Part shown: in pieces, positions 8,532-35,034 of the stretch | Layout: every line of letters begins with the position of its first letter | Position numbering within the stretch: position 1 is the first letter of the stretch | Assembly (NCBI RefSeq): GCF_019468465.1 | Contig: NZ_CP080519.1 | Span: forward strand, 8,921,001-8,985,000 | Reading direction: 5' to 3' | DNA: 64,000 nt | Source: Amycolatopsis sp. DSM 110486 | Lineage (GTDB): Bacteria > Actinomycetota > Actinomycetes > Mycobacteriales > Pseudonocardiaceae | Notes under the pieces: generated by a model | The model's input: the letters and a program-made list of their open reading frames with translations, nothing else | The model's database searches: none | Told to the model about the DNA's origin: nothing | Made by a program: the position numbers and the translations under genes

Positions 8532-8635
8532 CCCGCCACCACAACGCACTGGGGGGTCGGGCCCGGGGGCACCCGGACGCGACGCGGGCGCCGCGCGGGC
8601 AGGCTCTGACGCGACGACCGAAACGGAGAACCCAC

Positions 8636-9871
8636 ATGCCACCTACGCTGGCCGACGGCCACCTCTACCTCCAGACCAACGAGGTCAGGAACGCGATCAT
8701 CCACTACTCCCGAGGGGCCGACGGCGCCCTCACCGAGGTGGAGCGCGTACCCACCGGGGGTGGCGGGTCCGGGGTGTACAAGCCGATCAGCGGCCAGGAG
8801 AGCGCGCCGAACGCCTTCGAGGCGGCGGGCAGCGTGATCCTCACGGCGGACCAGCAGTTCCTGTTCGCCACCAACGGCGGCGACAACTCCGTCTCCAGCT
8901 TCTCCGTCGGCGGCGACGGCAAGCTGACGCTGCTCGACGTGAAGCGCACCGGCAACATCGTGGCCGGGCGCAGCGGCACCGCGAAGTCGCTGGCGTTCTC
9001 GCCGGCCACCAGCACGCTGTACGTGCTGCACTCGTTCGGCCCGGACCACGTGCGGTTGATGACCGTGGACCCCGAGGGCAGGCTCACCTCGCGGCCCGAG
9101 GGCTACACCGTGAACACGCCGGACAAGCCGCTGCGCGTGTCCACGATGGTCGTGCTCTCGCCGGACGAGCGCTTCCTCGTCGTCGGCACCACGTTCGACC
9201 AGCCGGCCGCGGCCAACCCGGACGGTTCGCCGATCCTGTGGGCCGACCAGCCGGACGGCTCGAAAAAGTCGGTCGCGTCCAACGCCCCCGACCCCGACGG
9301 CATCATCGTCTTCCCGCTGCAGCACGACGGTTCGCTGGGCGAGGGCATGTTCCAGGACGGCGGCGGCGGTTCGCCGTTCTACCCCGCGTTCCTGCACCAC
9401 CGCCCGGACCACTTCGTGATCGGCTATGCCGTGGCCGACGGCATCGCGCTGGCCAAGCTCGACGACCGCGGCCAGATCGGCACCGGCCCGGTCGTGAAGA
9501 TCGACACCAGCGCCGGTCTGCCCTCGGAGCTGTGCTGGTGCGCGGTTTCGCCCGACGACAAGTGGGTGTTCGCCACGAACTTCGGCTACAGCAACATCTC
9601 CTGCTTCCGCATCGACGGCGACGTCGTCTCGCTGGTGCACGACAACGCCTGCCCGAAGATTCCCGGCGACGGTACCTTCCGCGCGCTCAACGGCACCGTC
9701 AGCAGCGGCCCGAGCGACAACTGGCTGACCCCGGACGGCACCCACCTGTACCAGATCTACGCCAACGCCTCGAAGCTCGTGGGCTACGCGGTGCAGTCCG
9801 ACGGTTCGCTCGTCGAGGTCACCGCCGCGGAGATCCCGTACAACAGCCCGCAGGGCCTGGCCGGGTTCTGA
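8636..9871 (+). CDS. beta-propeller protein, lactonase/YncE-like, first gene of urease operon
   Basis: The 411-aa protein begins at an ATG behind ACGGAGAA and has no signal peptide, unlike its paralogue at 5583. Seven-bladed propeller units are visible (LTADQQFLFATNGGDNSVSS, LSPDERFLVVGTT, VSPDDKWVFATNFGYSNISC, LTPDGTHLYQIYANAS). The fold matches the lactonase family (6-phosphogluconolactonase-like). The catalytic role is unproven and such proteins can be binding or scaffold propellers. The stop is only 3 bases from the ureA GTG, so it is probably co-transcribed with urease, an unusual association. One possibility is that it supplies or recognises a urea-yielding substrate. Confidence 0.8.
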   Translation: MPPTLADGHLYLQTNEVRNAIIHYSRGADGALTEVERVPTGGGGSGVYKPISGQESAPNAFEAAGSVILTADQQFLFATNGGDNSVSSFSVGGDGKLTLLDVKRTGNIVAGRSGTAKSLAFSPATSTLYVLHSFGPDHVRLMTVDPEGRLTSRPEGYTVNTPDKPLRVSTMVVLSPDERFLVVGTTFDQPAAANPDGSPILWADQPDGSKKSVASNAPDPDGIIVFPLQHDGSLGEGMFQDGGGGSPFYPAFLHHRPDHFVIGYAVADGIALAKLDDRGQIGTGPVVKIDTSAGLPSELCWCAVSPDDKWVFATNFGYSNISCFRIDGDVVSLVHDNACPKIPGDGTFRALNGTVSSGPSDNWLTPDGTHLYQIYANASKLVGYAVQSDGSLVEVTAAEIPYNSPQGLAGF

Positions 9872-9874
9872 GCC

Positions 9875-10228
9875 GTGACGGCGGGTGAGGCCGGCCAGGC
9901 GCGCATCGAGGCGACGCTGTCGTCCATGATGCTCAGCCCCCGGGAAATCGAGAAGCTGGTGATCTACCAGGTGGCCGAGCTGGCTCGGCGGCGCAAGGAC
10001 CGCGGTCTGAAGCTGAACTTTCCGGAGTCGATCGCGCTGATCACCGAGGCGCTGCTGGAGGCGGCCCGGGACGGCCGGTCGGTGGCGGAGGTGACCGAGC
10101 TGGGCAAACAGGTGCTCACGCGCGAGGACGTGCTGCCCGGCGTGCCGGAGATGGTGAACGTGGTGCAAGTCGAGGCCACGTTCCGCACGGGCACGCAGCT
10201 CGTGGCCGTGGCCGACCCGATTCCATAG
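9875..10228 (+). CDS. ureA: urease subunit gamma
   Basis: The 117-aa protein contains the complete gamma subunit: [31 protein letters not shown], then [23 protein letters not shown]. Urease gamma is normally 100 aa. The ATG at 9926 or 9929 ([11 protein letters not shown]) would give exactly this length, so the first 17 residues from the GTG at 9875 may be untranslated or an extension. The GTG lies 3 bases after the upstream stop with no clear Shine-Dalgarno site, suggesting coupling. UreA joins UreB and UreC in the (abc)3 urease complex that hydrolyses urea to ammonia and carbamate in the cytoplasm. Confidence 0.95.
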
Positions 10229-10237
10229 GAGCGCACG

Positions 10238-10618
10238 ATGATTCCAGGCGAATGGCTGCTCGCCGACGAGCCGATCGAGCTCAACGCCGGCCGGCGCACC
10301 GCGCGCCTGCCGGTGCGCAACACCGGTGACCGGCCGATCCAGGTCGGTTCGCACTTCCACTTCTTCGAGGTGAACCGGGTGCTGGACTTCGACCGCCCGG
10401 CGACGCTGGGTATGCGGCTCAACGTGCCCTCGGGGCAGTCGATCCGCTTCGAACCGGGCGACGAGCGGGACGTCGAGCTCGTGGAGTTCGGCGGCGCCGG
10501 GCGGGTGGTCGGCTTCAGCGGCCTGCTCGACGGCGGTTTCGCGGTTCGCGGAGCGGCGGCCCGGGCCCAGGCGCGGGCCGCCGAGCGCGGCTTCACGGGA
10601 ACGGGGGACCAGGCGTGA
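10238..10618 (+). CDS. ureB: urease subunit beta
   Basis: The 126-aa protein starts [10 protein letters not shown] and contains the beta-subunit hallmarks [39 protein letters not shown] and [17 protein letters not shown]. The usual length is 100-125 aa. The start is clear (GGAGCGCACGATG), 9 bases after ureA. The stop overlaps ureC by 4 bases (GTGA). It is a structural subunit without metal ligands. Confidence 0.97.
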
Positions 10619-12333
10619 CCACGGTTTCGCGGCGGCACTACGCGTCGCTCTACGGCCCGACTGCGGGCGACCGCTTCCGCCTGGCCGACACCGAACTGCT
10701 CGCCCGGGTGGAACGCAGTCTCATCCTCCCGGGCGAGGAAGCGATCTACGGCGGCGGGAAGTCCATTCGGGACGGGATGGCGCAGGCACCCGGCGTGCGC
10801 AACGCCGACGGCGCCCTGGATCTCGTGATCACCTCGGTGATCGTGATGGACGCCGTGCTCGGCATCCTCAAGGCGGACATCGGCGTCAAGGACGGGCTGA
10901 TCGCCGGCATCGGCCAGGCCGGCAACCCGTCGGTGCAGGACGGGGTGTCGCCCGGGCTGGTCATCGGGCCGGGCACGGAGGTGATCTCCGGCGAGGGCCT
11001 CGTCGCCACCGCCGGGGCGATCGACACCCATGTGCACTTCCTGACGCCGGCCCAGATCCCGCACGCGCTCGCCGGCGGGATCACCACGCTGCTGGGCGGC
11101 GGGACCGGACCGGCCGACGGGTCCAAGGGCACGACCTGCACGCCCGGTCCGTGGAACCTGGCCCGGATGTTCGAGGCGACGGCCGCGCTGCCGGTCAACA
11201 TCGGCCTCATGGGCAAGGGCAACAGCAGCCGCCCCGAAGGCCTGCGCGAGCAGGTGGAGGCCGGCGCCTGCGGGCTGAAGGTCCACGAGGACTGGGGCGC
11301 GACCCCGGCGGCACTGGACTGCGCGCTGTCGGTCGCCGACGAGCACGACGTGCAGGTGGCGCTGCACGCCGACACCCTCAACGAAAGTGGCTACCTGGCC
11401 GACACCCTCGACGCGATCGACGGCCGGACGATCCACAGCTACCACACCGAGGGTGCCGGTGGCGGCCACGCGCCGGACATGATGGCGATCGCGTCGCTGC
11501 CCAACGTGCTGCCGTCCTCGACCAACCCGACGCGTCCGTACACCACGGACACGACGGACAACCTGTTCTACATGACGATCGTGACGCACCACCTCAACCC
11601 CGACAACCCCGAGGACGTCGCGTTCGCGCAGTCGCGGATCCGCGCCGAGACCGAGGCGGCCGAGGACGTACTGCACGACCGGGGTGTGCTGAGCATGTAC
11701 TCCTCCGACGCGCAGGCCATGGGACGCATCGGGGACACCGTCACCACCTGCTGGCGCACCGCGGACAAGATGAAGAAGCTCACCGGCAGCCTGCCCGGGG
11801 AGGCCGCGGGCGACGACAACCAGCGGATCCTGCGGTACCTGGCGAAGCTCACGATCAACCCGGCGCTGACGCACGGCATCGGCCACGTCGTGGGCTCGCT
11901 GGAGCCGGGCAAGCTCGCCGACATCGTGCTGTGGCCGACGAACACCTTCGGCGTCAAACCCAAGTACGTGCTCAAGGGCGGGTTCGTCGCGTGGTCGGTG
12001 ATGGGTGATGCCAACGCGTCCATCCCGACGCCGGAACCGGTGCTGCTGCAGCCGATGTTCGCCGGGCTCGGCCAGGCGGTGGGGCGGACGTCGATCACCT
12101 TCCTCTCGCAGGCGGCGCAGGAGAGCAAGCTGTTCGAGCGGCTCGGGATCGACCGGTGGACCGAGGCCGTGCGCGGGTGCCGGACCGTGGGCAAGGCGCA
12201 GATGGTGCGCAACGAGCTGACGCCCGACATCACGGTGGACCCCGAGACGTACCAGGTCACTGTGGACGGTGAGCCGGCCGTGGTGCCCGCGGTGGACGAG
12301 GTGGCCATGTCGCAGCTGTACTACATCGTCTGA
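10615..12333 (+). CDS. ureC: urease subunit alpha (catalytic), flap Cys replaced by Thr
   Basis: The 572-aa protein has the dinickel site intact. His139 and His141 lie in DTHVHF, the carbamylated Lys222 and His224 in GLKVHEDWG, a His in [11 protein letters not shown], another in [10 protein letters not shown], and Asp365 in SSDAQAMG. With a constant offset of 5 from Klebsiella numbering, the flap residue Cys319 becomes Thr324 in IVTHHLNPD, and catalytic His320 is kept as His325. The flap Cys is not strictly essential in enterobacterial urease but affects pH profile and inhibitor sensitivity. The substitution therefore predicts an active enzyme with altered behaviour toward thiol-directed inhibitors. 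GTG start overlapping ureB. Confidence 0.96.
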
Positions 12334-12335
12334 AA

Positions 12336-12408
12336 TGCGGGATCGTCTGACGTGCGGGATCGCCTGATGTGCGGGCTGTCCGATGACCGGGCCTGTCCGA
12401 TGACCGGG
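12336..12408 (+). repeat. two pairs of tandem direct repeats between ureC and ureF
   Basis: Two 15-base units reading TGCGGGATCG(T/C)CTGA lie at 12336-12350 and 12353-12367. They are followed by two identical 16-base units CTGTCCGATGACCGGG at 12376-12391 and 12393-12408. They fill most of the 83-base ureC-ureF gap. Each unit carries a TGA or GATGA, so any read-through would stop. They may have arisen by local duplication, and the function is unknown. Confidence 0.85.
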
Positions 12409-12416
12409 GTCCGCTG

Positions 12417-13148
12417 ATGCCGCCGTACCTCGGGGGCGCCGACTGGCTCACGGGCTTCCTGTCCGTGCTGCAGCTGAGCGATTCGGCGTTCCCGAGCGGC
12501 CGCTACACGCTGTCCTACGGCCTGGAAACCCTGGTGCAGTCGGGTTTCCTGGCGACGCCGAGCGACCCGCGGGTGCTCTCGGCGCTGCTGCGGGACCAGC
12601 TGCTGCTCGGGGTGGCGCCGTCGGACGGGGTGGCACTGGCATGCGCCCACCGCGCCACGGCGTCGGGGGACTCCCTCGACCTCGAGTGCGTGACCCGAGC
12701 CGACGAACGGCTGACCGCGGTGAAGCTGGCGCGGGAGGCGCGGGAGACCTCCACCCGCACGGGGCGGGCGTTGCTGCGGATCGCCGGGTCGGTGTTCCCA
12801 ACCGAGGCGTTGCGGCACTACGCCGACTGTGTCGCGAAAGGACGGTCGCCCGGCAACCACGCGGTGGTGCTGGGAATCCTGAGCGCGTCGGTGGGCGTGC
12901 CGCGGCTGGAGGCGGTGGCGGGGGAGCTGTTCGCGTTCTCCGCGGCCTGGGTCGCGGCGGGCGTGCGGCTGGCCGTCACCGACCACAGCACCGCGCAAGC
13001 CGTGCTCCACGACGTGCGGGCTGCCACGGCCGAAGCGGCGATGTGCACCGTGGACAAGGACCCCGACGCCATCACGAGCTGCACGCCGCTGCCGGACGTG
13101 GCGGCGATGCGGCACGAGGAAACGCAACTGCGGCTGTTCGCCAGCTGA
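12417..13148 (+). CDS. ureF: urease accessory protein UreF
   Basis: The 243-aa helical protein has the UreF signature [21 protein letters not shown] near residues 17-37 and the central GNHAVVLGI. UreF bridges UreD and UreG and gates GTP-dependent nickel transfer into apo-urease. The start at ATG 12417 is not strongly marked. The gap before it holds tandem repeats, so a different start slightly downstream is possible. It is followed by ureG after 13 bases with a good Shine-Dalgarno site. Confidence 0.93.
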
Positions 13149-20170: not shown

Positions 20171-22870
20171 GTGCTGGACCGGCGCGCGGAACGCGAGACC
20201 CTCGACCGGCTGCTGGACTCCGTCCGCGCCGGTAAGAGCCAGGTGCTCGTGCTGCGCGGCGAGGCGGGCGTCGGCAAGACCGTGCTGCTCGACCACCTGG
20301 CCCGCCAGGCCGCCGGGCTCCGCGTCGCCCGCGCCGGGGGCGTCCAGTCCGAAATGGAGCTTGCGTTCGCCGGCCTGCACCAGCTGTGCGCGCCGATGCT
20401 CGACGGCGCCGAAGCCCTGCCGGATCCACAGCGGGTGGCGCTGCGCACCGCGTTCGGCCTGAGCCCGGGCCCCGCGCCCGACCGGTTCCTCGTCGGCCTG
20501 GCCGTGCTGGGTCTGCTGGCCGAGGAGGCGCGAAACCGGCCGTTGCTGTGCGTGATCGACGACGCCCAGTGGCTGGACAGCGCTTCCGCGCAAGCCCTCG
20601 CCTTCGTCGCGCGCCGGCTGGTCGCCGAGTCGGTCGCGCTGGTGTTCGCGGTGCGGGAGCCGGCCGCGGCCACGGAACTGACGGGCGTCGCGCAGCTTGT
20701 GGTCGAGGGTTTGCCCGACGCGGCGGCCCACGACCTGCTCGACTCCGTGCTGCGCCTGCCCGCCGACGACCGCGTGCGCGACCGGATCGTCGCCGAGACC
20801 CGCGGCAACCCGCTGGCGCTGGTGGAGCTCTCGCGCGGGCTGAGCCCGAAGGAGCTGGCCGAGGGATTCTCCCTGGCCGGTGCGACCACGATCCCGCGTC
20901 GCATCGAGCAGCGTTACCAGGCGCGGCTGGCCCAGCTCGACTCCGACACCACGCGCTTGCTGCTGATCGCCGCACTGGAACCGCAGGGCGACCCGGTGAC
21001 GCTGTGGCGTGCGGCCGGGCTGCTCGACATCGGCGCCGAAGCAGCGGAACCCGCGCTGGCGGCCGGGTTGATCGAGATCGGCACCCACGTGCGCTTCCAC
21101 CACCCGCTGGTGCGCTCGGCGATCTACCAGGCCGCGGCACCGAGCGAGCGGCGCCGGGCGCACTGGGCGCTCGCGCAGGTCACCGACCCCGAGACCGACC
21201 AGGACCGCCGCGCCTGGCACGCGGCGCAGGCCGCCGAAGCACCCGCGGAAGAGGCCGCCGAAGAGCTCGGCCGGGCGGCATGCCGGGCGCAGGCCCGGGG
21301 CGGCATGGCGGCCGCCGCGGCGATGCTGGAGCGCGCGGCGGAGCTGACGGCGGACCCCAAGACCCGGGCGAAGCGCACCCTGGAGGCGGCCCACGTCACG
21401 CACGTCGCGGGCGCGCCGGAGGAAGCGCTGCGGCTCTTGTCGATCGCCGAGGCCGGCCCGCTCGACCGGCTCGAGAAGGCCGAGGCCGACCTGCTGCGCG
21501 GCCGGATCTCGATGACCGTCAACCGCGGCCGCGAGGCGCCGCCGCTGCTGTTCGCCGCGGCCCGGCAGCTCGAGGAGCTGGACGTGCGGCTGGCCCGCGA
21601 GACCTACCTCGACGCGCTGCTGGCTGGGATGTTCGCGGGCGTGACCGACGCCGAACTGCGTGAGGTCGCCGAGGCCGCGCGCGCCGCACCGCGGTCGCCG
21701 CAGCCTCCGGGCCCGGCCGACCTGCTGCTCGACGGCCTGGCGATCCGGTTCACCGACGGTTTCGCGCCCTCGCTGCCGATGCTGCGGCGGGCGCTGAGCG
21801 CGTTTCGCACTCCCGATCTGTCGCTGAAGGAACTGCACTGGCTGTGGCTCGCCCACATCATGGCCGGGAACATGTGGGACGAGCAGACGCTCGACACCGC
21901 GCGGCACCTGCAGCTCGCGCGCGACAAGGGCGCGCTCAACACCCTGCCGCTCGCGCTCGCGTCGCACATCGGCGCCCACGTCTACGCGGGTGACCTGGTC
22001 ACCGCGGCGCACCTGCGCGACGAGCTCGCCGAGGTGTCGCGGGCGACCGGGATTCCGGCGGCGACGTACGGGACGCTGCTGCTGGCCGCGTGGCGTGGGC
22101 GCGAGGACGAGGCACGCGCCGTGATCGCGCGCACCGAAGCGGAGGCAGTGCGGCGCGGGGAAGGGTTCGGGCTGCTGATCGTCGGGTCGGCCCGTGCGGT
22201 GCTGTGCAACAGTCTCGGCCACTACGCGGAAGCGCTGGCGTCGAGCGAAGACGCGCGGCAGCGGCCGCCGGTGATGGGTGTGGAGCCGTGGCTCGCGCTG
22301 GTGGAGCTGATCGAAGCCGCCACCCGGCTCGGCAAGACCGCGGCGGCCGAGGACGCGTTCGCCCGGCTCGTGGAGACCACGCGCGCCAGCGGCACCGACT
22401 GGGCGCTGGGCGTCGAAGCCCGCTCACGCGCGTTGCTGGCCACCGGCGAAGACGCCGAGAGCGCTTACCGCGAGGCCGTGGAACGCCTGTCGCGCACCCG
22501 CATCCGGGGCGAGTGCGCGCGGGCGCGACTCCTGTACGGGGAGTGGCTGCGCCGCCGGCGCCGTCGGGCCGACGCGCGGGAACAGCTGCGCGCCGCCCAC
22601 GACATGTTCACCGAGATGGGCATGGAGGCGTTCGCCGAACGCGCGGGCCGCGAGCTGCGGGCGACCGGCGGCACGGCGCGCAAGCGTTCCGTCGAGACCG
22701 GCACGGAGCTCACCGCGCAGGAGGCCCAGATCGTGCGGATGGTGCGCGAGGGACTGTCGAACGCGGAGATCGGCGCGCGGCTGTTCCTCAGCCCGCGCAC
22801 GGTGGAATGGCACCTGGGGCGGATCTACGACAAGCTCAACGTCACGTCCCGGCGCCAGCTTCAGAGCTGA
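20171..22870 (+). CDS. LAL-type LuxR-family regulator
   Basis: The 899-aa protein starts at a GTG behind AGGTGGG. Its P-loop is GEAGVGKT (residues 30-37), Walker B is CVIDDAQWLDSASAQALAF, followed by a winged-helix/TPR-like region and a C-terminal HTH (LTAQEAQIVRMVREG ... LSPRTVEWHLGRIYDKLNV). It shares the layout of the two divergent genes but is a more distant paralogue (EWHLGRIY against EYHLKVF-type). The last 10 bases overlap, convergently, the 3' end of the DUF6510-like gene. Confidence 0.92.
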   Translation: MLDRRAERETLDRLLDSVRAGKSQVLVLRGEAGVGKTVLLDHLARQAAGLRVARAGGVQSEMELAFAGLHQLCAPMLDGAEALPDPQRVALRTAFGLSPGPAPDRFLVGLAVLGLLAEEARNRPLLCVIDDAQWLDSASAQALAFVARRLVAESVALVFAVREPAAATELTGVAQLVVEGLPDAAAHDLLDSVLRLPADDRVRDRIVAETRGNPLALVELSRGLSPKELAEGFSLAGATTIPRRIEQRYQARLAQLDSDTTRLLLIAALEPQGDPVTLWRAAGLLDIGAEAAEPALAAGLIEIGTHVRFHHPLVRSAIYQAAAPSERRRAHWALAQVTDPETDQDRRAWHAAQAAEAPAEEAAEELGRAACRAQARGGMAAAAAMLERAAELTADPKTRAKRTLEAAHVTHVAGAPEEALRLLSIAEAGPLDRLEKAEADLLRGRISMTVNRGREAPPLLFAAARQLEELDVRLARETYLDALLAGMFAGVTDAELREVAEAARAAPRSPQPPGPADLLLDGLAIRFTDGFAPSLPMLRRALSAFRTPDLSLKELHWLWLAHIMAGNMWDEQTLDTARHLQLARDKGALNTLPLALASHIGAHVYAGDLVTAAHLRDELAEVSRATGIPAATYGTLLLAAWRGREDEARAVIARTEAEAVRRGEGFGLLIVGSARAVLCNSLGHYAEALASSEDARQRPPVMGVEPWLALVELIEAATRLGKTAAAEDAFARLVETTRASGTDWALGVEARSRALLATGEDAESAYREAVERLSRTRIRGECARARLLYGEWLRRRRRRADAREQLRAAHDMFTEMGMEAFAERAGRELRATGGTARKRSVETGTELTAQEAQIVRMVREGLSNAEIGARLFLSPRTVEWHLGRIYDKLNVTSRRQLQS

Positions 22871-29837: not shown

Positions 29838-30222
29838 CTTGCGATGGTGACACAGGTCCAGTGACTACGGGAGGACACGCCACCGGCGCGGGCTTGATCG
29901 ACGGGCCGGAACGCCGAAGCCGGTGTCGATCGCAGTCGACCACGCCACGCCCTTTGGGCTAGAGTTCGGGCAACGCCTGCGCGCGATGCACCAGACCGGA
30001 GACGACCCGGTTTCTCCCGCCGCGCAGATCTTGCGACTCAGAGCCGGCAACCGCGTGCTCAGCGAGCGACTCGCCCAGACCACTGGCCCGGCGACGCCGG
30101 AACCTCCATCACGCACCCGCCTCGGCGCGACGTGGTCTTCGTCCGTGCCGACAGGCGCGCCGAGAACCGAAACCACAAGTACACCGGGCAGATCCACTCC
30201 CACCAGCAGAATCGAGCCGACA
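29838..30222. other. 385-base stretch without a confident gene
   Basis: It lies between the AraC regulator start and the DinB-like start. Frames run through it on both strands but their residue composition (many Thr/Pro/Arg/His) is not protein-like. It has slightly lower GC than its flanks. It probably contains divergent promoters plus decayed sequence. I see no clear operator. Confidence 0.5.
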
Positions 30223-30810
30223 ATGACATGGTCCATGCCACCGATCACCACCGGCACCGAACGCCGTTTGCTCGAGAGCATGCTCGACCGCAATCGGGCC
30301 GAGTTGGTCAGCACGGTGCGCGGCCTGTCCGAAGCCGAGGCTCGCCGCCGCTTCGTCGCGTCACTGACCACCCCGATCGGATTGGTCAAGCATGCCGCGG
30401 TCGCCGAACGGATCTGGTTCCAGCACGTCCTGGCGGGTCTGCCCGAGAGCGAATGCGACGGCGGCACGACGCCCGGCGACGCCAGTTTCATCGTCGACGA
30501 CAATGAAAGCCTGGCCGACGTGATCTCCGAATTCGACCGCACCGCCGAGCGTTCCCGCGTGATCGCCGCCGAATTCGACCTCGACGACATCAGGACACAC
30601 CCCCGTGTCGGCGACGTCAGCCTGCGGTTCGTCTACCTGCTCGCGATCGAGGACTTCGCGCGTCACGCAGGCCACGGCGACATCCTCCGCGAGCAGATCG
30701 AGCATCCCGCCGCACTCGACCGGCCACGGCGACCTTCGACGACGAACGAGATCATCGCCGGTCCGCGGGATCGAAATCAGGAAGCCGAACTCGACGGAGG
30801 AGCTGCTTGA
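30223..30810 (+). CDS. DinB-like (DUF664) protein
   Basis: The 195-aa protein begins at ATG 30223, where homology starts. A longer frame to 29923 adds Thr/Pro-rich sequence unlike the family. The four-helix DinB fold is indicated by LLESMLDRNRAELVSTVRGLS, a metal-binding GLVKHAAVAERIWFQHVL, and EDFARHAGHGDILREQI. The His triad (VKH and HAGH) is intact. DinB/DUF664 members are metal-dependent thiol-S-transferase-like or unknown. The last ~35 residues are an unusual extension. It ends 6 bases from the convergent NACHT gene. Confidence 0.8.
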   Translation: MTWSMPPITTGTERRLLESMLDRNRAELVSTVRGLSEAEARRRFVASLTTPIGLVKHAAVAERIWFQHVLAGLPESECDGGTTPGDASFIVDDNESLADVISEFDRTAERSRVIAAEFDLDDIRTHPRVGDVSLRFVYLLAIEDFARHAGHGDILREQIEHPAALDRPRRPSTTNEIIAGPRDRNQEAELDGGAA

Positions 30811-30816
30811 GGACCC

Positions 30817-33800
30817 TCAGCGTTCGGTGATGCTCGCCGCCTGGTCGAGGTGCAGCACGAGGTCGGCTTCCGGCAGCGCCTCGCGCGCCGCCCGCTCGTC
30901 GGCCGGGGTGAGGCCCGACAGCTCGATGCGCAGCGCGCCGAGCCGACGAAGGCGCACGAGGTCACGCGCCGGGGTCGCGGCGGTGAGGACGAGGGCGCGC
31001 AACGACGGCAGCGCGGCGAGCTCGTCGACCTCCGCGACGGAGGGAATGCCGGCCGCGGCGACGGTGTGCACGTCGGCGAGGCGGGTGATGCCCCGCAGGT
31101 CGCGCTGGTCCGCGCCCATGTCGACCACGAGTTCGCCCACGCGCAGGCCCTCGGGCAGCACGTCCAGGCCGTCGACGAGTTTGCGGTGGCGCACCGACAA
31201 CCGCGGCAGGTAGGTGCCCTCGACCGACGCCAGGGCTTGGATCGCGTCGAGCGTGCCGGCGTGCAGCCGCAGGTCGGTGAGGTGCATGCGCGACAGCGCC
31301 GAAAGGTCGGTCAGCGCACTGCCGAAGCCGGTGATCCACAGGGAACGCAGCGCGCGGCAGGCGACGAGCCCTTCGAGGTCGTGGACGACGTCGTTGGACT
31401 TGATCTCGAGGTGGCGCAGGGCGGGCAGCCGGGTGAGCGGGTGCAGCCCGAGGGCCGGGTCGTCGAGCGTCATGTCGCCGACGAGCTGGATCGCCGTGAG
31501 CGTGCGGAGGTGGCGCAGCCGGCGCAGCACGTCCCAGCGGTGCACCTCCAGCACGAAGTCGCCGAAGTCCACAGTGGACAGCAGGGTGGCGGCGTACTCC
31601 TCGGAGTACTCATTATGGCGCCAGGCGCGCAGCAGCTCGTCGATCACCGAACCCCGGTGCGTGCGGCTGAACGCCTGGATCTTCTCCCACGACTCCTCGC
31701 CGCCGATCAGCGCGAGCGTGCGGATCACGCGCGCCGCCACCAGATCCGCGTCGGCGCTCGCGTGCCGGGCGATCTCGGCCGGCCCGGGGAGCAGGTCGAT
31801 CACGAACGCGCCGGCCTTGGCCAGCAGCTCCGCCTGGTCGAACCCGGCGGGCGGGATGAGCCTGCGGACCGCGGCCAGCACGTCGGTGCGCACCTGCTCG
31901 GGCTCGATCACGTCGACGTAGCTCATCTCCGCCGCGGCCAGCAGCGACAGCCGGTCGGCCACCTCGCGGTTGCCGCGCTTGCGCGCCCGCTCCAGCAGCC
32001 TGGCCAGCAGATCGCCGGCCTCCCGTGCGCGGGCCTGGGCGGCGACCATGAACACGACCTCGTTGAGCGCGTCGTCGTGGGCGTGCTCGACGAGATAGCC
32101 GAGCTCGCCGGACTTCACGAACTCACCCGCCGCGAGGAAATCGCGGAACGTGCGGTGCACGAACGCGATCCGCCCGTCCACGGCGTTCTGCCGCAGCACG
32201 CCGCTGCGCTCGAGCAGGTGCCGCAGCACCAGGTCGGGCTCGATGCCCTGCGAGCGCAGCCCGGACATGGCGCGGCCGAAGCGCTTGCGCGCGTCTTCGG
32301 GGTGCACGAGCAGTTCGGCGTTGCGGACCATCGGCGCGGCGAACCGCTCCAGGAGGATGATCTTCTCCTTGTCCGACATCTTCAGCTCGTCCTCGACCTG
32401 CACCCCGCGCCGAGTGTCCCACTCGCCGAGCAGCAGCTTCAGCGCTTTGTCGAGCAGGTCTTTGCGGCTCTGCGGGAGGTACATGTTCTCCCGCCGGTAG
32501 AGCGCGCACAGCAGGGAGCACAACAACGGGCTCGAGACGAGTCCGCGCACGTCCGGGCGGGTCGCGAGCGAGTCGCCGAGGCGTTGTTCGCAGTCGGCGA
32601 GCCAGGAGCGCTGCAGCTCGTCGGTCTCCATCGCGCGGGCGGCGCTGAACCAGTTGCCGATGAGCTCCCGCATGCCCCGCCCGCTCAGCGGCAGCAGCTC
32701 GTACGCGGGGAACGGCTCGCCGGCGATCGGCCACTCCGGGTCGACGACGGCGGGCCGGGTGCTCACGACGTAGCGCGCTCCGGGGTACCCGCGCAGCAGG
32801 CCTTCGAGCCAGCGGCGCACCTCCTCTCGCCGCGGCTGCAGGACCTCGTCGACGCCGTCGACGAGCACCATCGCGCGCCCGGAGCGCAGCAGCTCGCTGA
32901 CCCACCGGGCGGGTTTCTCGCCGGCCAGCGCCGGGGCCGTCACGCGCACGAGGTCTTCGGGCTGGGGCAGGCCGCGGTCGGCGAACTCGCGCAGCGGCAC
33001 GAAAAACGGCACGACGCCGCGCCAGGGGTCTTCGCTTTCGCCGTCGCCGGTGAACTCTGCGGTGGCCGCCGTGTAGGCCAGCCACTGCAGCAGTGTCGTC
33101 TTCCCGGCGCCCGCGCCGCCGACCAGCAGCACGCGCCGCTCGGCGGCCAGCGCGTGGGCGGTGTTGGTGCCCGCGCCCGTCAGCGCCGAGCCCGCGGCCG
33201 TCCCGCCCTGGCGCGTGACCGACGGGGCCGCGTAGTACTGCGAGAACGAGTGGCGCACGGGGGCGCGGCCGTGGCCGACCTGGAACAGCTCGAACGTGGC
33301 GTAGTCCGTGGCGAGGTAGGACAGGTAGTGCTGCTCGAAGGCTTCGGCGCGGTCGCGCGTGCGCCGATCCTCCTGGCTCTGCAGGTCGGCGACGGCGCGA
33401 CGGATCTTCAGCACGTCGCCGGCCATCCCGGCCTGCACGGCGCGCATCACCTCGTCGACGGCCCGGGCGCGGCGGGCGACGCGCCGGCAGCACTCGTCGA
33501 GCAGGCGGTGGAACGCCGCGGTCGCGTCGGCGCCCAGGGCGGCCGCGTCGAGCGCCTGGCCGCCGGCGGTGCGGACGCGGGCCCGCAGGCGGTCTTCGTC
33601 GACGAGCACGGCGGGGTTCGTGCGGACGAGCCCGCCCACGTCGGCGGCGTCGAGGGCAACCGCCGCCGCGTCGAGCGCGGCCTGCGAGTCGCCGTCGGAC
33701 ACGGCCGGGAACTCGACCCGCCGCAGCTCGGCCAGGTCCTCCTCGGCCGCGACCAGCTGCCGGTGGGGATCACCCAGGGCGCGCGCCCGGCGCTGAGCCG

Positions 33801-33870
33801 TGAGCTTGTCGGCGCCGCGCTCGACCGCCCACTGGTACAGCGCGGAGAAGGTGGCACCCAGCGAGGCCAC
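30817..33870 (-). CDS. NACHT-domain STAND NTPase with leucine-rich C-terminus (candidate immune protein)
   Basis: The 1017-aa protein has three parts. Residues 1-235 form a helical N-terminal domain like the NACHT N-terminal helical (NNH) family, without a recognisable nuclease, TIR or protease. Residues ~245-430 form the NACHT NTPase, with Walker A LLVGGAGAGKTTLLQW (Lys257) and Walker B AMVLVDGVDEV (residues 333-343), then GYPGARYVVSTRPAV. A winged-helix/helical region follows (FVHRTFRDFLAAGEFV). Residues ~720-1017 have a leucine-rich-repeat-like pattern (LPALRHLEIKS, CRALRSLWITGF, LPSLRALVL). Bacterial NACHT proteins of this type include anti-phage NLR-like factors (Kibby et al. bNACHT work). 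It is a single gene. The GTG start has no Shine-Dalgarno site, and NNH-like residues (VDPLSSAL) are readable just upstream. Confidence 0.88.
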   Translation of the reverse strand: MASLGATFSALYQWAVERGADKLTAQRRARALGDPHRQLVAAEEDLAELRRVEFPAVSDGDSQAALDAAAVALDAADVGGLVRTNPAVLVDEDRLRARVRTAGGQALDAAALGADATAAFHRLLDECCRRVARRARAVDEVMRAVQAGMAGDVLKIRRAVADLQSQEDRRTRDRAEAFEQHYLSYLATDYATFELFQVGHGRAPVRHSFSQYYAAPSVTRQGGTAAGSALTGAGTNTAHALAAERRVLLVGGAGAGKTTLLQWLAYTAATAEFTGDGESEDPWRGVVPFFVPLREFADRGLPQPEDLVRVTAPALAGEKPARWVSELLRSGRAMVLVDGVDEVLQPRREEVRRWLEGLLRGYPGARYVVSTRPAVVDPEWPIAGEPFPAYELLPLSGRGMRELIGNWFSAARAMETDELQRSWLADCEQRLGDSLATRPDVRGLVSSPLLCSLLCALYRRENMYLPQSRKDLLDKALKLLLGEWDTRRGVQVEDELKMSDKEKIILLERFAAPMVRNAELLVHPEDARKRFGRAMSGLRSQGIEPDLVLRHLLERSGVLRQNAVDGRIAFVHRTFRDFLAAGEFVKSGELGYLVEHAHDDALNEVVFMVAAQARAREAGDLLARLLERARKRGNREVADRLSLLAAAEMSYVDVIEPEQVRTDVLAAVRRLIPPAGFDQAELLAKAGAFVIDLLPGPAEIARHASADADLVAARVIRTLALIGGEESWEKIQAFSRTHRGSVIDELLRAWRHNEYSEEYAATLLSTVDFGDFVLEVHRWDVLRRLRHLRTLTAIQLVGDMTLDDPALGLHPLTRLPALRHLEIKSNDVVHDLEGLVACRALRSLWITGFGSALTDLSALSRMHLTDLRLHAGTLDAIQALASVEGTYLPRLSVRHRKLVDGLDVLPEGLRVGELVVDMGADQRDLRGITRLADVHTVAAAGIPSVAEVDELAALPSLRALVLTAATPARDLVRLRRLGALRIELSGLTPADERAAREALPEADLVLHLDQAASITER

Positions 33871-34011
33871 CAGCGCGGAGGAGAGCGGATCTACGACGAC
33901 ACCCCCAGTGTGCGTTCCGGGGTCAGTTTACCGGCCGGGGCGACCCGCGGCGAGGACGTGAGCCGCACCGCGCGCGGGAATCAACCGAGGCCCGCGTACG
34001 CTTCCACAGGC

Positions 34012-35034
34012 GTGAAGAACATTGGTTTCCTCTCGTTCGGCCACTGGTCGGACACCCCGCACTCCGAGACCCGGTCGGCGAAGGACTTCTTGCACCAGTC
34101 CATCGACCTGGCGGTGGCGGCCGAGGAGCTCGGCGTGGACGGCGCCTACTTCCGCGTGCACCACTTCGCGCGGCAGGCCGGCAGCCCGTTTCCGCTGCTC
34201 TCGGCCATCGGCGCCCGCACCTCGAAGATCGAGATCGGCACCGGCGTGATCGACATGCGCTACGAGAACCCGCTCTACATGGCGGAGGACGCCGGCGCGG
34301 CCGACCTCATCTCCAGCGGCAGGCTCCAGCTCGGCATCAGCCGGGGATCCCCCGAGCAGGTGATCGACGGCTGGCGTTACTTCGGCTTCGCCCCCGCCGA
34401 CGGCGAGACCGACGCGGACATGGCCCGCCAGCACGCCGAGGTCTTCCTGAAGGTCATCGAGGGCGACGGCTTCGCGCAGCCGAACCCGCGCCCGATGTTC
34501 GCCAACCCGCCCGGCCTGCTGCGCGTCGAACCGCACTCGCCCGGCCTGCGCGAGCGCATCTGGTGGGGCTCCGGCTCCAACGCGACAGGCGTGTGGGCCG
34601 CGAAGCTCGGCATGAACCTGCAGAGCTCCACCCTCAAGGACGACGAGACGGGCGAACCCCTGCACGTCCAGCAGCGCAAGCAGATCGAGGCCTACCGCGA
34701 GGCGTGGAAGGAGGCCGGCCACGAGCGCGAACCGCGCGTGTCGGTCAGCCGCAGCATCTTCGCGCTCACCAACGACCTCGACCGCGCCTACTTCGGCCGC
34801 GACCGCAACTCGCAGGACCAGGTCGGCATGATCGACGAGAACACGCGCGCCATCTTCGGCCGCTCCTACGCGGCGGAGCCCGACGAGCTCGTGCGGCAAC
34901 TCAAGGAGGACGAGGCCATCGAGGCCGCCGATACCCTGCTGCTGACGATCCCGAACCAGCTCGGGGTGGAGTACAACGCCCACGTGCTGGAGAGCATCCT
35001 GACGCACGTGGCGCCGGAACTCGGCTGGCGCTGA
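34012..35034 (+). CDS. LLM-class flavin-dependent oxidoreductase
   Basis: The 340-aa luciferase-like TIM barrel starts at GTG 34012 (VKNIGFLSFGHW). Family features are VDGAYFRVHHFARQ, TGVIDMRYENPLYMAEDAG, LGISRGSPEQVI and the C-terminal substrate-binding part. It is FMN- or F420-dependent. The substrate is unknown. It is divergent from the NACHT gene across 141 bases and convergent with the amidohydrolase, sharing a perfect hairpin between the 3' ends. Confidence 0.87.
   Translation: MKNIGFLSFGHWSDTPHSETRSAKDFLHQSIDLAVAAEELGVDGAYFRVHHFARQAGSPFPLLSAIGARTSKIEIGTGVIDMRYENPLYMAEDAGAADLISSGRLQLGISRGSPEQVIDGWRYFGFAPADGETDADMARQHAEVFLKVIEGDGFAQPNPRPMFANPPGLLRVEPHSPGLRERIWWGSGSNATGVWAAKLGMNLQSSTLKDDETGEPLHVQQRKQIEAYREAWKEAGHEREPRVSVSRSIFALTNDLDRAYFGRDRNSQDQVGMIDENTRAIFGRSYAAEPDELVRQLKEDEAIEAADTLLLTIPNQLGVEYNAHVLESILTHVAPELGWR

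What the first reader, a model, noticed from the sequence alone, without database searches (positions are those of the whole stretch)
30817..33870. Lone NACHT-LRR-like NTPase: candidate anti-phage NLR
A 1017-aa protein joins an NNH-like helical N-terminus, a complete NACHT NTPase (Walker A Lys257, Walker B with GVDEV) and a leucine-rich C-terminus. No effector nuclease, TIR or protease domain is visible, and no partner gene is within 140 bases on either side. Known: bacterial NACHT proteins include anti-phage factors. Inference: the helical N-terminus would be the effector (for example membrane-acting), making it a single-gene system.
Basis: partly seen in the sequence, partly recalled or inferred. 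Interest (0 to 1): 0.75.

Follow-up and report, generated by a model that had tools for sequence, protein, structure and literature searches.

The report
Lone bacterial NLR-type immune receptor gene
A soil actinobacterium carries a stand-alone gene for a protein built like the immune receptors of animals (helical head, NACHT switch, leucine-rich sensor); it is a genuine bacterial NLR of a known kind, and its relatives suggest that the head is an exchangeable output part, but that it fights phages is not shown.

The parts
30817..33870 (-). NLR gene as called: 1017 aa, GTG start, NNH1-NACHT-helical-LRR
33871..33894 (-). eight in-frame codons upstream of the GTG (VDPLSSAL), conserved in relatives; the probable start lies here (GTA at 33892-33894, non-standard, unproven)
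   Evidence: the G052 copy (L008 and L043 are the same record) differs from the window in these codons only synonymously, and there the GTG reads GTC; 63 of 83 aligned sequences have the Asp of DPL
33902..33906 (-). GGGGG, Shine-Dalgarno-like, 7 nt upstream of the GTA
   Evidence: inference
33301..33894 (-). NNH1 all-helical N-terminal module (residues 1-198 of the extended frame)
   Evidence: Pfam NNH1; models
32641..33138 (-). NACHT NTPase (Pfam match, residues 253-418)
33097..33120 (-).
   Evidence: Lys265 invariant in 83 sequences
32842..32868 (-). Walker B VLVDGVDEV
   Evidence: Asp346 and Glu350 invariant
31570..32640 (-). helical / winged-helix region with FVHRTFRDFLAA motif (residues 419-775)
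   Evidence: 'winged helix' is named from general knowledge of NLRs
30841..31569 (-). LRR region, 11 strands in the model (residues 776-1018)
30229..30810 (+). convergent neighbour: mycothiol-S-transferase (MST/DinB_2), start approximate; not a partner; the 29864-30816 segment is absent from the closest relative G010
34012..35034 (+). divergent neighbour: luciferase-like monooxygenase, matched in 62 of 80 genus genomes; not a partner

Best explanation
A single-gene bacterial NLR. In the resting state the NACHT NTPase holds the protein closed. A ligand binds the C-terminal LRR; nucleotide exchange lets NACHT modules assemble into a ring; this clusters the N-terminal NNH1 helical bundles, which act as the output (a non-enzymatic scaffold, a recruiter of a host effector, or a cell-disabling module), ending in growth arrest or death of the infected hyphal compartment. 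Shown here: the domain order, the motifs, the NLR-like predicted fold and the exchange of the N-terminal module between relatives. Inferred from the NLR/STAND family: ligand sensing, nucleotide switch, oligomerisation. Inferred with less support: that the trigger is a phage and the outcome defence.
Against: No defence island in the loci looked at; neighbours are mainly metabolic. Two cousins with XRE helix-turn-helix N-termini suggest that the chassis can also regulate transcription. In the closest 27 sequences the exposed LRR strand positions are no more variable than other LRR positions (p 0.51), although they are over all 83 (p 0.0076), so recent arms-race selection is not evident. NNH1's activity is unknown. 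Patchiness fits any accessory gene.
Confidence: 0.6

Rival explanations
1. A STAND-type regulator of development, stress or specialised metabolism rather than a defence factor: the LRR senses a host or environmental signal and the oligomer controls a partner.
For: The genome holds 7 NACHT places at E 0.001, not all likely to be defence genes; related chassis carry XRE or LuxR helix-turn-helix domains (P0107, P0108); neighbours are mainly metabolic genes.
Against: Only 4 of 80 genus genomes hold an intact ortholog-grade copy, the gene is eroded in relatives, and no neighbour is kept, unlike a core regulator. This protein has no DNA-binding domain in Pfam.
Confidence: 0.22
2. An NLR whose NNH1 head is an adaptor that recruits a separate effector encoded elsewhere (as CARD and PYD domains do), so it is not a single-gene system. 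This is compatible with the best explanation's NLR core.
For: NNH1 shows no conserved enzyme-like set: only A76, L103, L120 and C136 reach 90% within residues 1-185; it is all-helical; no effector gene lies beside it. In the cyclase-type relatives the enzyme-like domain is fused directly.
Against: No conserved partner found; only one NNH1 place in the genome at E 0.001, so no second NNH1 protein for like-with-like binding was seen.
Confidence: 0.35
3. NNH1 acts on membranes as a pore former.
For: The first helix is a 22-residue uncharged stretch in the window protein; the N-terminus is the most hydrophobic stretch in 42 of 83 relatives and more hydrophobic than that of 15 cyclase-type relatives; over the 23 closest sequences its first 40 residues are well kept (0.70 identity).
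Against: KD19 of the window's N-terminus is 1.27, below 1.43 elsewhere in the same protein; only 24 of 83 relatives reach 1.6; no pore-former fold among the listed matches.
Confidence: 0.2
4. A decaying or silent gene without present function in this strain.
For: Broken copies in G010, G056 and G029; no standard start codon for the conserved N-terminus in the window.
Against: The window copy is open over 1017 codons with the NACHT motifs kept; N-terminal codon differences to the G052 copy are synonymous.
Confidence: 0.08

Closest known systems
Pfam NNH1 (PF22733)-NACHT (PF05729) proteins of actinobacteria
   Same: Same domain order; P0002-P0026 are 52-83% identical and 23 of those 25 carry both Pfam domains; a database names one relative 'NACHT domain/NACHT N-terminal Helical domain 1' (P0012) and another 'NACHT conflict system protein' (P0074)
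   Different: NNH1 scores just over the cut-off here; its function is unknown
bNACHT / bacterial NLR-related anti-phage proteins (bNACHT25 and others)
   Same: Central NACHT, C-terminal sensor, N-terminal effector plan; that paper states that bacteria encode NACHT modules with LRRs, 'bona fide bacterial NLRs' (PMC12169576, passages)
   Different: In those passages bNACHT25/32 carry a DNase effector and NCH1 C-terminus, bNACHT02/12 a short SNaCT C-terminus; here NNH1 and LRR, and no phage test
Animal NLRs NLRC4, NLRP3, NOD2
   Different: Sequence identity 13-20%; no CARD, PYD or BIR head (those heads are named from general knowledge)
Cyclase-NACHT-LRR relatives (P0030-P0038, P0040-P0042 and others)
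   Same: About 50% identical from the NACHT on; one (G009, N-terminus checked) sits directly upstream of the same luciferase-like gene
   Different: N-terminus is class III cyclase-like (3mr7 E 3.6e-7; 5d0g E 0.0014)

Membership tests
NLR (nucleotide-binding, leucine-rich repeat) architecture | central STAND NTPase of the NACHT clade with Walker A and B | tested here: met
   Pfam NACHT 71.6 bits against 26.7; Lys265, Asp346 and Glu350 invariant in 83 sequences
NLR (nucleotide-binding, leucine-rich repeat) architecture | C-terminal leucine-rich repeats | tested here: met
   profile E 9e-30 to a solved internalin over 778-977; 11 strands in the model; single-sequence Pfam LRR hits below cut-off
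NLR (nucleotide-binding, leucine-rich repeat) architecture | overall fold like solved NLRs | tested here: met
NLR (nucleotide-binding, leucine-rich repeat) architecture | nucleotide-dependent oligomerisation | not testable with these tools
   needs biochemistry
Pfam NNH1 (PF22733) | score over the curated cut-off of 27 bits | tested here: met
   27.6 bits, 35.8 bits in the six-frame search; marginal
bNACHT anti-phage proteins | protects against phage, dependent on NACHT | not testable with these tools
   no experiment
bNACHT anti-phage proteins | N-terminal effector of recognised activity | tested here: inconclusive
   NNH1 has no confident fold match
Defence-island gene | clusters with known defence genes | tested here: not met
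   10 neighbouring proteins in the window: 2 partial PADLOC hits (oxidoreductase C3a156; a CARF3 model matched at the LuxR helix-turn-helix end); 10 in L041, L042, L043 and L046: 1 partial mad2 hit, E 5e-16; other neighbours were not scanned
PADLOC-listed systems | full-length match to a PADLOC model | tested here: not met
   best E 0.0031, residues 241-269 (P-loop) only

The most novel reading that the evidence does not exclude
This lineage is a natural module-swap series on one NLR chassis: the same NACHT-LRR sensor drives a helical NNH1 head of unknown fold, a class III nucleotide cyclase or a DNA-binding head. The NNH1 head would then be a new non-enzymatic death or recruitment module, and its sister lineage an NLR that answers infection by making a cyclic nucleotide, which would join NLR sensing to cyclic-nucleotide defence in one polypeptide.
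Probability: 0.3. Interest if true: 0.75.

Novelty: new member of a known kind. Interest (0 to 1): 0.45.

Why it matters
NACHT modules are held to have arisen in bacteria and passed to eukaryotes (PMC12169576, passage), yet the four bacterial proteins described there as robustly protective have NCH1 or SNaCT C-termini rather than LRRs. A lone, well-modelled actinobacterial protein with the full animal layout, and close relatives bearing a different enzyme-like head, offers a direct test of which part senses and which part acts: swap heads, keep the sensor. The repeated decay in sister species fits a costly, dispensable defence gene, though other accessory genes decay too.

Tried and rejected
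Tried and of no use: searches scanned the wrong strand (my error) and gave nothing. NCBIfam gave no family for the NLR. The search for related loci in genome contigs gave only two loci. The literature search for NNH1 returned listings of unrelated papers. Searches for cyclase plus NACHT plus Pycsar and for bacterial NLRs in Actinobacteria listed, among the rows shown, no paper that I recognised as being on this family; I saw only listings and abstract starts, so absence from print is not claimed beyond.

Limits: in the tree the label NNH (111 of 136) is the default for proteins not recognised as cyclase, HTH or other, and was not verified one by one. My first labelling regex missed six cyclase-type proteins and was corrected. 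Three proteins are labelled HTH, but the HTH is verified by Pfam in two; P0151 is close kin of P0108 and its record begins after the HTH. 17 fragments of 153 listed proteins were dropped; the 153 are the best 120 rows of each of two searches that had 263 and 523 hits. The tree is FastTree, midpoint-rooted. The cyclase metal and transition-state residues are named from general knowledge: two Asp are conserved in 21 of 21; the Asn is clear in 15, absent in 5, unresolved in 1. G056's relic was found only because its locus was fetched, so relics may be under-counted; a frame change in G010 could in part be an assembly error. Kibby et al. 2023 was not read; statements about it come from PMC12169576 passages.

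Full report

Corrections to the finding. The gene is alone in the operon sense, but a convergent mycothiol-S-transferase gene ends 6 bp past its stop codon. Upstream, the divergent luciferase-like monooxygenase starts 141 bp from the GTG. The GTG itself is doubtful: many relatives begin with M(V)DPLSSAL-like sequence, and the window encodes VDPLSSAL in frame just upstream without a standard start codon before the next stop; in the G052 copy these codons differ only synonymously and the GTG reads GTC. That copy has an open frame and a standard start further upstream, and the G062 and G070 copies start with GTG at the DPL position, so the missing standard start is seen only in the window and G010. 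A GGGGG stretch lies 7 nt before a GTA codon at 33892-33894. A non-standard start is possible, unproven.

The N-terminal module is exchangeable. Of 153 proteins listed by two searches, 136 that are not fragments were placed on a tree of the core (547 columns). The window's clade of 27 (support 1.0) is sister to 18 proteins (support 1.0), of which 17 carry a cyclase-like N-terminus; the next outgroups are labelled NNH-type. In all, 21 are cyclase-type, 3 are labelled HTH (P0107 and P0108 by Pfam; P0151 as kin of P0108 only), 1 is other, and parsimony needs 5 changes. The cyclase assignment rests on a profile of 15 such proteins: residues 9-131 match a solved adenylate/guanylate cyclase (3mr7, E 3.6e-7) and 57-147 match Ma1120 (5d0g, E 0.0014); single-sequence Pfam gave no cyclase hit for the four scanned (P0031, P0036, P0037, P0065). 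Two Asp that I take for the metal ligands are kept in 21 of 21. Homology between the two types starts near residues 181-186 of the extended frame. This is the best evidence that the residues before it are an output part.

What NNH1 does. It is all-helical in the full model and in a model of the domain alone (pLDDT 91.5). The domain alone matches no solved structure with confidence. Within residues 1-185 only A76, L103, L120 and C136 reach 90% conservation, and E61 is kept in 71 of 83: not an enzyme-like pattern. The first helix is uncharged for 22 residues in the window protein; the N-terminus is the most hydrophobic stretch in 42 of 83 relatives but reaches a membrane-like score in only 24, and in the window protein it is less hydrophobic than another stretch. 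Hence scaffold or recruiter is at least as likely as a pore.

Distribution and decay. In the 80 genomes of the genus sample 43 have some relative at E 1e-30 or better, but ortholog-grade intact copies lie only in the own genome, G052, G062 and G070; G009, G047 and G068 hold cyclase-type relatives at 50-51%. G010, syntenic at 91-96% DNA identity, lacks 31430-32816 of the gene, changes frame near residue 212, and lacks the 29864-30816 segment with the neighbour gene. G056 keeps only the two ends of the gene beside the luciferase-like gene. G029 keeps about 114 C-terminal residues at another place. The deletions in G010 and G056 differ. Neighbours of intact copies differ: chaperonin and peptidase genes (G070), short-chain dehydrogenase and polyketide-cyclase-like genes (G062), a purple acid phosphatase (G052). 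PADLOC scans of 20 neighbours gave three partial hits. In the phylum sample NNH1 passes E 0.001 in 10 of 296 genomes, 7 over the cut-off.

Mechanism. By family (STAND/NLR) the LRR senses, the NACHT switches and assembles, the N-terminus acts. The fast-changing ends and slow core (seven relatives) fit this. Evidence for sensor diversification is mixed: non-hydrophobic strand positions of the LRR vary more than other such LRR positions over 83 sequences (p 0.0076) but not among the 27 closest (p 0.51). I put a defence or self-killing role first, a regulator second.

Known or new. PMC12169576 (passages) states that bacterial NACHT proteins with LRRs exist and that bNACHT proteins defend against phages; NNH1 is a Pfam family. 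So this is a new member of a known kind. The exchange of an NNH1 head for a cyclase-like head on one NLR chassis is the part most worth following; I noticed no paper on it in the listings. Passages were read in PMC12169576, PMC7159879 and PMC8195603. The latter two describe cNMP-cyclase and other effector fusions in related conflict systems of multicellular bacteria, so the principle is known.

Noticed in passing
33892-33894 and 33902-33906, minus strand: The conserved N-terminal codons have no ATG/GTG/TTG before the upstream stop; a GTA codon with GGGGG 7 nt upstream may be a non-standard start. The same layout is in the G010 copy; the G052 copy keeps the GTA but has an open frame further upstream.
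   Followed up: partly
L046 (G009) 8555-11689 and 11728-12750: A cyclase-NACHT-LRR relative lies 38 bp upstream of, and in line with, an ortholog of the luciferase-like gene: a second NLR-type gene at that gene, in another orientation.
   Followed up: partly
L040, window 29864-30816: The mycothiol-S-transferase segment is absent from the closest relative, the alignment resuming exactly at the NLR stop codon.
   Followed up: partly
P0107: A NACHT-LRR relative with an XRE helix-turn-helix at the N-terminus and a LuxR-type one at the C-terminus.
   Followed up: no
P0124: 1304-aa relative with a further, unidentified N-terminal region (only NACHT and LRR_4 by Pfam).
   Followed up: no
L044 12094-13101, L045 12365-13372: Two cyclase-type NLR genes each have an adenosine deaminase gene directly upstream on the same strand.
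   Followed up: partly
window 20171-22870: AAA_16-LuxR regulator whose homologues also lie near the cyclase-type NLR genes in L044 and L045 (65-66% DNA identity); may be chance.
   Followed up: no
NNH1 residue Cys136: A cysteine conserved in 80 of 83 sequences in an otherwise poorly conserved helical domain.
   Followed up: no
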